Assembly (NCBI GenBank): GCA_001664505.1 | Contig: CP011806.1 | Span: 2,172,487 to 2,236,486, forward strand | DNA: 64,000 nt | From: Acidobacteria bacterium Mor1 | Lineage (GTDB): Bacteria > Acidobacteriota > Polarisedimenticolia > Polarisedimenticolales > Polarisedimenticolaceae | Direction: 5' to 3' | Shown here: one piece after another, positions 1 through 25,665 of the stretch | Numbering within the stretch: position 1 is the stretch's first letter | How the letters are laid out: every line of letters starts with the position of its first letter | Notes under the pieces: generated by a model | Seen by the model: only the letters and a program-made list of their open reading frames with translations | What the model was told of the DNA's origin: nothing | The model's database searches: none | Position numbers and translations under genes: made by a program

Positions 1-1280
1 TCGATCGCCGGGTAACCTTCGGCAACGTAGAGGATCAGGTCGGGGAACTTCTGCTCCCAACCCTCCTGGCCATGCCGCAGGAAGTGCACGGCCAACCAGG
101 CCGTCGAGTAGTAGACGTCATGGCGGGTACCGTAGAACTCATCCCGGCTCGAGCCGAGGAGCTTCTCCAGGGTGATGTTTTCCTTGCGCGAGACCGCCTT
201 GCGCACGGTGTCGGCCGAGATCGACTGGTGGGACTTCCCGATCAGCACGCCCCAAGGCCCCCCGAAGAGCCGTTTCTTCGGGGTTCGGCCGGGAATCAGC
301 ACCCCCTTCTTCACCTGAGAGTTCCCCACGTACTCGGCAAAGCCCTCGTCGAGCCAGCGGGGGAACACCACCCCCGGCTTGGCCAGGTAGCGATCGATGA
401 ACGCGTGGGTCGATTCGTGCAGCATGATCGCGAGCAACGACTCGCGGGTCGGCATCTCGGTATGGAACGCGAGCAATCCCAGTGGCGAGTAGAACCCCGC
501 CGACCACTCCACAGACTGGCCTCGTAGCTGCAGGCCCTGGTACTGGGCCCGCGTCTCGAACATGAAGACCACCACCCGGTACGGCTCGGGCTGGGCCTGG
601 ATACGTCCATCGAGAATACCGTGGAGCGCCTTGAAGGTCGCCTCGATGTTGTTGGCCACCACGGCCGCCATGCCCTCTTGCTGAGAATCGGTGTAGACCA
701 CCACCAGCGGAGTGGCGTGCTGTTGAACCTGTTCCTGCTTGAGCTGATCGTTGGCCAGCGCCGCCAACTTCTCCAGCCGCTTCAGCCGTGCCTCGATCGG
801 CATGCTGAGGATCTCGCGCCGCAAGGACTGTCCGCGGTTCGAGCCTCCGGAGTCCATTGCGGAGCTCAACAGCGACCGGCCGCGCTCCAGCACGAACTCT
901 CCCTCGGGCTGTTCGATGCGCTTGGGAAACTGGACGCCCCAACTGAGTTGGGTCGCCACCGGCTTGCCGTCCTCGAGGGCGGGGGCGTAACGCCAACGCT
1001 CGAGGGTTTCCACGACAACCCGGCGGAAGGCGTCGTCCAGCTCCGACGACGGGCGGATCGAGAGGATCTCGACCTCGGCGACGCGACCGAGCGCATCGAC
1101 CTGGATCTGCACCTCGACCTGGGGCTCCAGATCGGTTCCGGCAGCCTCGATCGGCACGATCAGGTTCGGGGTGTAAAGCGGTACCGGCGGGAAGCGCTCG
1201 GGCTCGGCCGCGGCGGAGAAGGCAAACGGGGCCAGGAGAGCTAACAGCAGCCCCAATGGGCGCAAGCGAGTGCCGGGCAT
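1..1280 (-). CDS. Secreted TonB-C domain / HExxH metallopeptidase-like protein (C-terminus off window)
   Basis: The 426 visible codons start at ATG 1280 (upstream GGGGGAT as ribosome site) with a signal peptide (residues 1-24). Residues about 50-118 resemble a TonB C-terminal domain (VxxxIxVDxxGRVxxVEI...ALEDGKPV). The second half is of DUF1570/gluzincin type: HESTH at 288-292 supplies a HExxH zinc motif, and the Glu in GFAEY about 20 residues later is a likely third ligand. A periplasmic or surface peptidase is plausible but unproven. It lies 35 nt downstream of the selenoredoxin gene and is probably co-transcribed with it. The true frame is open to the window edge, so the C-terminus is missing here. 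Confidence 0.85.
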   Translation of the reverse strand, partial: MPGTRLRPLGLLLALLAPFAFSAAAEPERFPPVPLYTPNLIVPIEAAGTDLEPQVEVQIQVDALGRVAEVEILSIRPSSELDDAFRRVVVETLERWRYAPALEDGKPVATQLSWGVQFPKRIEQPEGEFVLERGRSLLSSAMDSGGSNRGQSLRREILSMPIEARLKRLEKLAALANDQLKQEQVQQHATPLVVVYTDSQQEGMAAVVANNIEATFKALHGILDGRIQAQPEPYRVVVFMFETRAQYQGLQLRGQSVEWSAGFYSPLGLLAFHTEMPTRESLLAIMLHESTHAFIDRYLAKPGVVFPRWLDEGFAEYVGNSQVKKGVLIPGRTPKKRLFGGPWGVLIGKSHQSISADTVRKAVSRKENITLEKLLGSSRDEFYGTRHDVYYSTAWLAVHFLRHGQEGWEQKFPDLILYVAEGYPAI

Positions 1281-1315: not shown

Positions 1316-2797
1316 TTATTCGCCGACTTCGATCCGCACCGGAATGTCGTGACGACGGTAAAGGCAAGTTCCGTCGATATCTTCGCACACGTAGTAGACG
1401 GCGTATACCGGCAGTCGCACACCCTTCTCGGCCCCGGCCGGAACCTGGACCTCGAATTCGACCCGGCGGGGTTCGTCGCTGATCCGCTCCCGCGGGATCG
1501 GCACGGTCAGCCGGCGCCGGTCCACCTGCCAGCCCTCGGGCGGATCGATCCAGACCGCCAGTTCCCGGGCTTCGTTGTTCCAGTGGGTGCCGGTCTGCTC
1601 GTTGGGCCGGAACTCCAGGTGCACCCGCACCGATTGCCCCGGCGCCACCTTCTCGGGCACCACGACCTTCTCCACCTCGATGAAGCGTCCCTGATCCCGG
1701 GTGACCTTGCCGCCGGGATCGGGCTCTCCCACCTCCGAAGCATCGGCCTGAAACTCGCGTTGGGGTGAGGTCAACTCGGCGCCGGCGGGTTCCACCACCA
1801 GCGGCAGCGGCTCCTCCTCACGGGCGCTAATCGCGTCACGGGCCTCGGCGACCCAGTCGTAGAACGGGTAGGGCTTGGCCTGGCGCGGCCCGTACTGCTG
1901 GATGCGGCGGCGCCAGATGTAGTTATTGGGATCGATCTCGAGGGCACGGCTCCAGTGCTCGATGGCGTCGCTGAAATCCGTGGCCTCACCCTCGGGGCTG
2001 TCGTAGCGCATGCGCGAGGCGGCGGCCAGACGGAAGTGGGTGTAGCCGTGATCGGCATCGAGAGCGACCGCACTGCGGTACGCATCGATCGCCTCGCTGA
2101 CCCGGCGCTCCCCGCCCCACAACACGAGCTGTTCGGCGTAGGCCCGCCACGCGTCTGCAGTGCCGCTGCGAATCGCCTCGGCCTTGAGTCGGGAGATGTC
2201 CCGGGAAGCGGCGCGGCGGCGATCGCCTCCGTCACCCGCTTCCTTGCCGCCGGTCTTCGAACTCTCTCCGTCGGAGGAATCGCCGGGAGCCGGATAGGTC
2301 TTGTCGACGAACAGCTCGCCGATGTTGGCGGCGTCCCGCTGGCGCAGGCCGACGTGACGCACGATGCCGTGCTCGTCGATCGCCACGGTGACCGGCACGA
2401 CGGTGACCTCGAGCAGATTGAGGGAGTCGACCATTAACGGCCAGTCCATCTGCTTCCACTGCATGAACAGCCGGGCCCGGTCGCCGTGCTGCTCCTGAAG
2501 GATGCCGAGCATCACCAGCTTGCCGTCTTCCTGAAGTTGCCTGGTCGCTTCGTGCCACCCGGGCACGTGTCTTCGGCAGCCTGCTCACCAGGAGGCGAAG
2601 ACGTGGAGCACCACCTTCTTGCCGCGGAAATCCCGGATCGACAGCGGCTGACCGTCCTCGGCCGAGGGCAGGCTCAACTCGGGAAAGGGTTGACCGACCT
2701 CGAACGGGATATCGAGCCCCTGGGCCAGGGCGGTGGTGGCGGGCATCAGCAGCAGGGCGGCCAGCAGCCCCCCCGCGACGAGCGCTCGATCGAACAC
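1316..2797 (-). CDS. Predicted selenoprotein: secreted redoxin (UxxC) with TPR and C-terminal beta domain
   Basis: Read through one in-frame TGA, this is a single 493-residue secreted protein. Residues 1-25 are a signal peptide ending ALA. Residues 30-165 are a TlpA/redoxin-type thioredoxin fold: the strand VVLHVFASW, then Sec71-Ala-Gly-Cys74 in place of CxxC, and a cis-proline at Pro135 in VVPVT. Residues about 216-300 form two TPR-like helical pairs. Residues about 375-493 form a beta-sandwich with Cys471 and Cys478 (CEDIDGTC), reminiscent of the DsbD N-terminal domain. It probably performs thiol-disulfide or peroxide redox chemistry outside the cytoplasm. The start is chosen at GTG 2797 (GAGGAG just upstream, compact signal peptide). 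ATG 2857 is an alternative, but it lies upstream of the likely transcription start. A Cys-to-stop mutation is the main competing explanation. Confidence 0.8.
2551..2567 (-). promoter_or_regulatory. Candidate bacterial SECIS hairpin
   Basis: In the mRNA, 17 nt after the TGA, the segments CGUGCC and GGCACG form a perfect 6-bp stem closing the 5-nt loop CGGGU. The loop begins 24 nt after the UGA and has G at its second position. The published bacterial SECIS criteria are a loop of 3-14 nt starting about 16-37 nt after UGA with a G among its first two bases, and all are met. The hairpin lies inside the coding region, as bacterial SECIS elements do. Folding was done by eye. Confidence 0.65.
2585..2587 (-). 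other. In-frame TGA, predicted selenocysteine codon
   Basis: On the minus strand the codon order is Phe-Ala-Ser-Trp-TGA-Ala-Gly-Cys-Arg. In thioredoxin-fold proteins the residue after this Trp is the nucleophilic Cys of WCxxC, so the TGA replaces exactly the residue that selenocysteine replaces in known UxxC selenoproteins. The frame is open and family-like on both sides: signal peptide and first strand before it, helix, cis-Pro, TPR and C-terminal domain after it. Confidence 0.78.
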
Positions 2798-2847
2798 ACA
2801 CTCCTCACGGATCGCCCGACGGGGGACGGAGCATCGGGCGTCACGTT

Positions 2848-24003: not shown

Positions 24004-25665
24004 TCAACGGTTGGCGACCAACCAGACGTCGCGGCGGCTCAGCCGGGTGCGCTCGAGCACCCGCATGCGATCGACCAACTCAGGAGGCAGCAGATCGACC
24101 ACCTCCGCGTTGATCGCGGCGTAGACCACCTCCTCGTTCTGCAGGTGCTCGACCAGGCGCTCGTGCTTCCAGACCTCTTCGGTGTAGACCCCCTTTGAGT
24201 AGAGGGCGAAGGCCTCGGGGGAGTTCCCCAGGTTGAAGGCCAGCACCGGATGCCCGGCGGCACGGGAATCCGCCGAGGCTTCGGCCAGCTGCTCCGAGAA
24301 GTCCCGGGCGGATTTGACCGGATCCATGGCGGGGTAGATCAGGGAAGCCACCAGCAGGTACAGCCCGACGAAACCGAACGCCGGCGCCAGCACCCCCGCC
24401 AGCAAGCGGCCCCGAAGCAACATGCCCAGAGCCGCGATGCCGCCGACCCCGAGACTGATCGCCACGGCGACGACGACGGCAAAAGGAATCTGCGGATGGT
24501 CCCCCAGGTTCGCGACGAGAGCCGCCGCGCCCAGCACGAGCAAGACCGCGGTGATCGCCTGTCCGGCCAGGACCCAACGCCTGGAGATCCGGGTGGCGGC
24601 CTCTTCACCCCACCCGAGCACGTGCCCCACCCCCCGAGCGGTCAGGAGGGCGAAGGCGGGCAGCGACGGGAGCGCGTAGAGCTCCCGCTTCTCGGTAGAG
24701 ATCGTGAACACGATCAGCACGAAGAACGCGGCGACCAGCAGGAAACGGTCGAACGTGACCCTCCGGCGCATGGCCAGCAAGACACCCGCCGGCACGATAC
24801 CGGTCCAGGGCAGCAAGTACGGAGGCATGACCTTCAGGTAGTACCAGAACGGCTGCTTGTGATGCATGCCGCTGATGCTGCGATCGATGAAGTGTTCCCG
24901 CAGAGCGCCGTAGACCGAATAGTCGCCGCCGGTACCCAGGGTCGCCGCGACCATCCAGCCGGCGAGCAGTCCGACGAACAGCAAGATGCCCAGAGGTGAG
25001 AGCAAAACACTCAACGACGCACCCGGCTGGAAGCCGCCATGGGCCTCGCCACCGGGCACCGGCCCGGGAGCCGGGCCGGCGAATCGATCGACGATCCCCG
25101 TAATCGCCACGATCCCGACCGGGAGCAGCAGCCCGATCGGCCCCTTGGCCAGAACCGCCAGCGCCACCGCCGCCCAGAAGAGCAACCCGGGGCCGAGCCC
25201 TTTCCACTCTCCGGCCCGGCGGGCGACGAACGATGAAAGGGCGACCCAGATGCAGAAACAGAGGGTCGCGTCGATCTGGCTCCAGCGGGACTTCTCCCAG
25301 AACATCACCAGGGTGCAGAGGATCAACCCGGCAAGCGCCGCGGTCCGGGGATCGCCGTAGCGCCTTCCCAACCGAATGGTAAGCAGCAGCGTACCCAACC
25401 CGGCGAGCACCGACGGCAGGCGCGCGGTGAACGAGAACACCTCACCGAAGGGCAGGGAGAACAGCGCGATCAGCCAGAAGAACAAGGGCGGCTTGTCGGT
25501 GCTGATCATGCCGTTGACGTGGGGCACGAACCACTCGCCATCGGCGATCATCTCGCGAGCACCCTCGGCGAAGTAGGGTTCGTCGGGCGCCCAGAGGTCG
25601 TAGCCCCAGAGATTGCAGAGGAACAGGACCGCCGCCAGCAGGACGACGGCACGGCGCGGGGTCAT
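24004..25665 (-). CDS. GT39/ArnT-like membrane glycosyltransferase
   Basis: The 553-residue polytopic protein has the ArnT/PMT signature near its N-terminus: WAPDEPYFAEGAREM with the catalytic Asp-Glu, and STDKPPLFFWL. About 11-12 transmembrane segments follow, then a periplasmic domain of about 110 residues. It transfers a sugar from a polyprenyl-phosphate donor to lipid A, glycan or protein at the periplasmic face. The start ATG 25665 overlaps the asparagine synthase stop by 4 nt (ATGA). It is the last gene of the surface-glycan operon. Confidence 0.9.
   Translation of the reverse strand: MTPRRAVVLLAAVLFLCNLWGYDLWAPDEPYFAEGAREMIADGEWFVPHVNGMISTDKPPLFFWLIALFSLPFGEVFSFTARLPSVLAGLGTLLLTIRLGRRYGDPRTAALAGLILCTLVMFWEKSRWSQIDATLCFCIWVALSSFVARRAGEWKGLGPGLLFWAAVALAVLAKGPIGLLLPVGIVAITGIVDRFAGPAPGPVPGGEAHGGFQPGASLSVLLSPLGILLFVGLLAGWMVAATLGTGGDYSVYGALREHFIDRSISGMHHKQPFWYYLKVMPPYLLPWTGIVPAGVLLAMRRRVTFDRFLLVAAFFVLIVFTISTEKRELYALPSLPAFALLTARGVGHVLGWGEEAATRISRRWVLAGQAITAVLLVLGAAALVANLGDHPQIPFAVVVAVAISLGVGGIAALGMLLRGRLLAGVLAPAFGFVGLYLLVASLIYPAMDPVKSARDFSEQLAEASADSRAAGHPVLAFNLGNSPEAFALYSKGVYTEEVWKHERLVEHLQNEEVVYAAINAEVVDLLPPELVDRMRVLERTRLSRRDVWLVANR

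What the first reader, a model, noticed from the sequence alone, without database searches (positions are those of the whole stretch)
2551..2587. SECIS-like hairpin just after the UGA
A perfect 6-bp stem (CGUGCC/GGCACG) with loop CGGGU begins 17 nt after the UGA. Loop start at 24 nt, loop size 5 and G at loop position 2 satisfy the published bacterial SECIS rules. This is independent support for Sec insertion.
Basis: partly seen in the sequence, partly recalled or inferred. Interest (0 to 1): 0.75.

Follow-up and report, generated by a model that had tools for sequence, protein, structure and literature searches.

The report
Conserved hairpin marking a selenocysteine codon
A small RNA hairpin right after an in-frame UGA codon is a real, evolutionarily maintained signal that tells the bacterium to insert selenocysteine rather than stop, in a secreted thioredoxin-like protein; the signal is of a known kind, but this family shows unusually clean proof of it and one case where the hairpin has moved.

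Summary
The hairpin is exactly where described, and comparison makes it a bacterial SECIS. Alone it is weak: about 3% of all TGA triplets in this GC-rich window have an equally good hairpin. Of 80 related genes found elsewhere, all 79 that cover the site have TGA. In 84 of 85 genes the two four-fold-degenerate wobble bases in the loop are complementary, against 182 of 616 at comparable dipeptides; this pair changed at least 9 times on the tree. In 10 of 86 rows, one planctomycete clade, the stem is broken, but the same stretch forms a stem 5 nt upstream. A sister selenoprotein family has the same hairpin one codon closer to UGA; its one Cys homologue lost the stem. The genome encodes SelA, SelB, SelD and tRNA-Sec, and six related loci lie beside such genes. 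The protein is a secreted UxxC redoxin + TPR + Ig-like family without its own NCBIfam model. Thermodynamic folding of longer stretches does not favour the hairpin. Verdict: real SECIS, new member of a known kind.

The parts
1316..2797 (-). Selenoprotein gene: GTG start 2797-2795 to stop 1318-1316, 493 residues with UGA read as Sec (residue 71); N-terminal signal-peptide-like hydrophobic stretch
   Evidence: open in frame except for the one TGA; orthologues align along the whole length
2801..2806 (-). Shine-Dalgarno-like GAGGAG, 3 nt before the GTG start
   Evidence: Read from the sequence; inference
2585..2587 (-). UGA codon read as selenocysteine (FASWUAGCR)
   Evidence: TGA in 79 of 79 genome contigs relatives that cover the site (80 loci in all) and in 11 of 11 other same-phylum genomes in which the site is covered (12 others have the gene)
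2562..2567 (-). SECIS stem, 5' arm CGUGCC
2557..2561 (-). SECIS apical loop CGGGU; bases 2561 and 2558 (Pro and Gly wobble positions) covary as a pair
   Evidence: Loop pair CG 58, GC 18, AU 5, other 1 in 82 distinct rows; 84 of 85 versus 182 of 616 control
2551..2556 (-). SECIS stem, 3' arm GGCACG
2336..2698 (-). Redoxin / TlpA-ResA-like thioredoxin domain with UxxC active site (2576-2587)
   Evidence: Pfam PF00578 2.2e-12 and PF08534 6.1e-12; predicted structure matches ResA-type chains at Z 14-15
1898..2197 (-). Helical TPR region
   Evidence: Pfam TPR matches, helices in the model
1319..1714 (-). C-terminal Ig-like beta-sandwich with a C-x6-C (both Cys invariant in 40 of 40 rows of A5)
   Evidence: model pLDDT 95.7; best structural matches are assorted Ig-like domains

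Best explanation
The hairpin is a functional bacterial SECIS. When a ribosome arrives with the UGA in its A site, the hairpin 17 nt downstream binds SelB carrying Sec-tRNA(Sec), SelB delivers selenocysteine, and translation continues through 422 more residues. The product is an exported UxxC redoxin with TPR repeats and a C-terminal Ig-like domain carrying a second Cys pair, most likely a periplasmic thiol/selenol oxidoreductase. Shown here: conservation of TGA, covariation of the hairpin at synonymous sites, presence and clustering of Sec genes. Inferred: SelB binding, actual Sec insertion, export and the redox role.
For: TGA in 79 of 79 relatives covering the site. Canonical stem plus loop pair: 96.5% of cells paired versus 89.6% in shuffles, 29 cells changed on both sides versus 7.1 (0 of 500 shuffles reach either). 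The loop pair joins two four-fold-degenerate wobble bases: complementary in 84 of 85 genes versus 182 of 616 Pro-[Gly/Val/Ala] dipeptides elsewhere in the same genes; the stem Val codon is GTG in 83 of 84 versus 1037 of 2633. Where the second His is Tyr (TAC), the Val codon is GTA in one of three rows (pair G-C to A-U) and GTG in two (G-U); in L096, with Ile-Pro-Val-Trp-Asn, CGUGCC/GGCACG becomes CAUUCC/GGAAUG. At least 9 changes of the loop-pair state on a tree built without the site. Sister family WAxxUGC: inner five pairs formed in 31 of 32, with the second pair C-G in 30 of 32 where the main family has G-C; its one Cys homologue has lost the two C-G pairs next to the loop. The genome has tRNA-Sec, SelB, SelA and a SelD that itself contains an in-frame TGA. 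selA, selB, selD or tRNA-Sec lies within 3 kb in 6 of 80 loci.
Against: Minimum-energy folding of longer stretches prefers other structures: the hairpin reaches 0.43 probability in UGA to +60 and at most 0.16 in eight other windows; in downstream-only folds of 79 relatives only 34 favour the canonical and 9 the shifted hairpin, 36 neither. RNAalifold on the mixed alignment did not recover it. Ten of 86 rows break the canonical stem. L098 breaks the loop pair, and 8 of 32 sister-family rows do not form it. On well-supported branches alone only 3 independent pairs are available, too few for significance. 2 of the 13 same-phylum genomes with the gene show no SelA (75% and 91% complete).
Confidence: 0.95

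Rival explanations
1. The hairpin is a by-product of a conserved peptide (HVPGWH) encoded in GC-rich DNA; the UGA is read as Sec, but with another or no local signal.
For: The peptide is highly conserved, and hairpins are common after TGAs in this window. Energy folding does not favour the hairpin.
Against: Covariation at two four-fold-degenerate wobble positions and the near-fixed GTG cannot come from the peptide. Stem pairs are compensated when the amino acids change (L096, L059, sister family DLPGWQ). The Cys homologue lost both Pro-Gly and the stem.
Confidence: 0.03
2. The TGA is a true stop, or a sequencing error or pseudogene, and translation restarts at the GTG 2566.
For: A GTG-initiated 416-codon frame starts 18 nt after the TGA. 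Table 11 annotation would give two pieces.
Against: TGA at the same codon in 79 of 79 relatives. The thioredoxin fold spans the TGA with high model confidence. Sec machinery is present.
Confidence: 0.01
3. UGA is reassigned (for example to Trp) in this organism.
For: None found; an open frame under a changed code is not evidence.
Against: UGA sits at the first Cys position of the CxxC active site (Cys in the more distant paralogues L114, L116, L119 of the same genome), and the genome has a complete Sec system.
Confidence: 0.01

Closest known systems
Bacterial SECIS (bSECIS) consensus model, as given in the review PMC13188914 (Fig. 2 legend, read)
   Same: Spacing 23 nt (allowed 16-37), 6-bp stem (4-16), 5-nt loop (3-9), G in the first two loop positions, -8.5 kcal/mol (at most -7.5), and a base pair inside the loop as in their N1-N2 pair
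   Different: The intraloop pair here encloses two bases (positions 1 and 4), where the legend's pattern has room for three
E. coli fdhF SECIS
   Same: Downstream hairpin in the coding region with a GG/GU loop; the invariant loop G corresponds in kind to G23
   Different: No bulged U in the 5' arm like U17 (PMC8659212 passages); the loop G lies at nt 28 counted from the U of UGA, against 23 in fdhF
NCBIfam NF041054, ResA-like WAxxUGC selenoprotein family
   Same: Redoxin plus following helical region, UGA at the homologous active-site position, same hairpin, often with the identical loop CGGGU (19 of 32)
   Different: Motif is UGC, not UAGC, so the hairpin is one codon closer to UGA; the window protein scores 70 bits against a cut-off of 300, and the match ends at residue 300, before the C-terminal Cys-pair domain
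'Redoxin family protein', UxxC, in Table 1 of PMC13188914 and in PMC9312934
   Same: Redoxin fold (PF08534) with UxxC
   Different: Only accessions and a motif are given; I could not open the sequences, so identity with this family is untested

Membership tests
Bacterial SECIS | Hairpin in the coding region, 16-37 nt between UGA and apical loop | tested here: met
   23 nt
[quoted passage not shown] stem 4-16 bp | tested here: met
   Loop CGGGU, 6 bp; the column of this G is invariant in 86 of 86 rows
Bacterial SECIS | Free energy of the hairpin at most -7.5 kcal/mol | tested here: met
   -8.5 kcal/mol
Bacterial SECIS | Structure maintained by selection (compensatory change) | tested here: met
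Bacterial SECIS | Host encodes SelA, SelB, SelD and tRNA-Sec | tested here: met
   all over curated cut-offs
Bacterial SECIS | Binds SelB and directs Sec insertion | not testable with these tools
   Needs a binding or reporter assay
E. coli fdhF-type SECIS | Bulged U in the 5' arm (U17) | tested here: not met
   The 5' arm is perfectly paired
NF041054 WAxxUGC_long | Score over the curated cut-off (300 bits) and UGC motif | tested here: not met
   70 bits; motif UAGC
Review entry 'Redoxin family protein' (UxxC) | Sequence match to the listed representative | not testable with these tools
   HEU0032618.1 / MBA3499694.1 could not be fetched; only PF08534 and UxxC agree

The most novel reading that the evidence does not exclude
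SECIS register switching: within one group of related selenoproteins the SelB-binding hairpin sits in three positions relative to UGA (loop G at nt 28 in the main family, 25 in the WAxxUGC sister family, 22 in a planctomycete clade), in the clade by re-pairing nearly the same nucleotides, and the peptide HVPGWH / DLPGWQ / AVPAWN after the active site is dictated largely by the RNA rather than by protein function.
Probability: 0.6. Interest if true: 0.55.

Novelty: new member of a known kind. Interest (0 to 1): 0.45.

Why it matters
It turns a one-sequence guess into a well-supported recoding signal, and it describes a family in which Sec appears fixed (no Cys form among the 79 relatives seen). 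Genome annotation by table 11 will cut such genes in two. The three hairpin positions give ready natural variants for measuring how much freedom SelB and the ribosome allow in SECIS spacing.

Tried and rejected
Single-sequence energy as evidence: z-scores near zero for longer stretches and low pair probabilities; dropped as support. RNAalifold on all 86 rows gave only three pairs of another helix, I think because two registers are mixed; on nine rows of the shifted clade it gave an 8-bp version of the shifted stem. The first alignment A1 had three rows in wrong orientation and was replaced by A2. In some searches some sister-family rows were overwritten by spurious frames (among them L136, L145, L146 and L157); one search is the corrected count (32 rows). 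L120, flagged with one TGA, is a gene whose TGA is its ordinary stop. A DsbD N-domain-like identity of the C-terminal domain (suggested to me from memory by the Cys pair) did not appear among the top 50 rows, so it stays open. Gene neighbourhood: neither window neighbour recurs, except one upstream homologue in L044. Literature: searches were the searches; no passage I read describes this redoxin-TPR-Cys-pair family. Seen: PMC13188914 abstract, outline, passages and part 1 of 3 of section 7; PMC1088965, PMC1794560, PMC2398784, PMC9312934, PMC12013277 and PMC8659212 passages only.

Full report
The observation. On the minus strand the sequence after UGA 2587-2585 is 17 nt, then CGUGCC (2567-2562), CGGGU (2561-2557), GGCACG (2556-2551). 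The hairpin alone folds at -8.5 kcal/mol, and it meets all four rules of the consensus bacterial SECIS model quoted in PMC13188914 (legend read).

How much that is worth alone. In this window 946 of 1347 TGA triplets on both strands are followed by a hairpin that passes a loose form of the rule, and 44 of 1347 by one as good as this (6 or more Watson-Crick pairs, -7.5 kcal/mol or lower). Longer folds do not favour it: probability 0.43 for UGA to +60, 0.01 to 0.16 in eight other windows.

Relatives keep UGA. A scan of one genome for each of 84,980 species returned 129 relatives, of which the best 80 were kept. The six peptide patterns used do not include the active site, so they do not select for UGA. 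Of the 80, 79 cover the site and all 79 have TGA. In a separate sample of 297 genomes of the same phylum, 13 have the gene at E 1e-20 or better; in 12 (own genome included) the site is covered and is TGA, and in G104 the match starts after it. The titles of the 80 loci name Acidobacteria, Gemmatimonadetes, Planctomycetota, Verrucomicrobia and others.

The hairpin covaries. Eighty-six rows (window, 79 loci, six more from the genome search) align without gaps. With the six stem pairs plus a pair between loop positions 1 and 4, 96.5% of cells pair, against 89.6% in shuffles and at most 55.5% when the partner is slid; 29 cells are changed on both sides, against 7.1. The loop pair is the strongest point: its two bases are the third positions of the Pro codon and of the following Gly, Val or Ala codon, all four-fold degenerate. 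They are complementary in 84 of 85 genes (of 86; L077, with a further in-frame TAG, dropped out of the count), against 182 of 616 Pro-[Gly/Val/Ala] dipeptides elsewhere in the same genes. The Val codon in the stem is GTG in 83 of 84, against 1037 of 2633 other Val codons. These simple contrasts ignore kinship. On a tree built with the site masked, the loop-pair state changes at least 9 times, and only L098 ends in a non-pair. On strongly supported branches alone there are only three independent pairs, all in agreement, which cannot be significant. Amino-acid changes are compensated as well: L096 has CAUUCC/GGAAUG, L059 CGUACC/GGUACG.

A moved hairpin. In ten of 86 rows, where the motif reads VPAWN, VPVWN or VPAWD, the canonical stem is broken at one or more pairs, and the same stretch forms CAGGCC-GUGCC-GGCCUG (or a close variant) five nt upstream. 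In the alignment of nine of these ten rows (L072 left out; 8 distinct) the shifted 7-pair helix has 96.4% of cells paired and the canonical one 75.0%; with so few and so similar rows the shuffles are not decisive (126 of 500 reach the observed value). The ten rows form one clade with support 99, so this happened once. The shifted loop begins at nt 19 after UGA, inside the published range.

A sister family. All 52 aligned members match NCBIfam NF041054 (WAxxUGC), the window protein at 70 bits against a cut-off of 300. Thirty-two TGA-bearing members of that family from the same phylum, found, were read. The inner five stem pairs are formed in 31 of 32 and all six in 29; the second pair is C-G in 30 of 32 where the main family has G-C, in step with DLPGWQ against HVPGWH; and the loop is CGGGU in 19. 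The hairpin lies one codon nearer to UGA, as UGC is one residue shorter than UAGC. Loop positions 1 and 4 are complementary in 24 of 32; the other eight have A at position 1 and U at position 5, which could close the loop instead. The one Cys homologue found, L135 (WASWCGCRQDLKAWQ), keeps four outer pairs but has lost both C-G pairs next to the loop, together with Pro-Gly; its genome still has SelA (G183).

Machinery and linkage. The genome holds one clear tRNA-Sec (72.7 bits, cut-off 47), SelB, SelA, and a SelD with its own in-frame TGA (SCAGUASKMG). Among the 80 loci, six carry Sec genes within 3 kb: L047 and L069 selB and selD, L088 selD, L061 and L085 selA and tRNA-Sec, L040 selB; in G101 selA lies about 3 kb away on the same contig. 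In the phylum sample 11 of 13 genomes with the gene have SelA, against 192 of 297 overall; the two without are 75% and 91% complete.

The protein. From a GTG at 2797 with GAGGAG before it, a signal-peptide-like stretch leads into a redoxin domain with UxxC, a TPR region and a C-terminal domain. The model has mean pLDDT 90.4. The first domain resembles ResA-type thioredoxins (Z up to 15.2, 133 residues, 2.1 A). The last domain, modelled alone at pLDDT 95.7, resembles assorted Ig-like domains (Z up to 10.8) and carries a Cys pair invariant in 40 of 40 rows (at least L089, not in that set, lacks the second Cys). I infer an exported thiol/selenol oxidoreductase with two redox centres; its partner is unknown.

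Conclusion. The SECIS claim is right. The signal is of a known kind. What stands out is the strength of the synonymous-site covariation, the absence of Cys forms among the relatives seen, and the register shift in one clade.

Noticed in passing
L122 (own genome, G000:C1:2910488-2911429): SelD of the window's genome is itself a selenoprotein (in-frame TGA in SCAGUASKMG); [quoted passage not shown]
   Followed up: partly
L077:3190-3204: A planctomycete relative has a TAG in frame five codons after the TGA (FASW*AGCR*HVPVWH): a sequencing error, a broken gene or a further recoding.
   Followed up: no
window 25067-25159: ARAGORN reports a tRNA-like element with a four-base anticodon reading (gctg), minus strand; possibly a chance match.
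   Followed up: no
window 1-1280: Downstream of the selenoprotein lies a secreted-looking protein frame that starts at 1280 on the minus strand and runs off the window; it is not conserved next to the relatives.
   Followed up: partly
L135: Cys form of the WAxxUGC family in a genome that still has SelA: a Sec-to-Cys change with loss of the SECIS pairs nearest the loop.
   Followed up: partly
L047, L069, L061, L085, L088, L040: Selenocysteine machinery genes (selA, selB, selD, tRNA-Sec) sit within 3 kb of this selenoprotein gene in several loci.
   Followed up: partly
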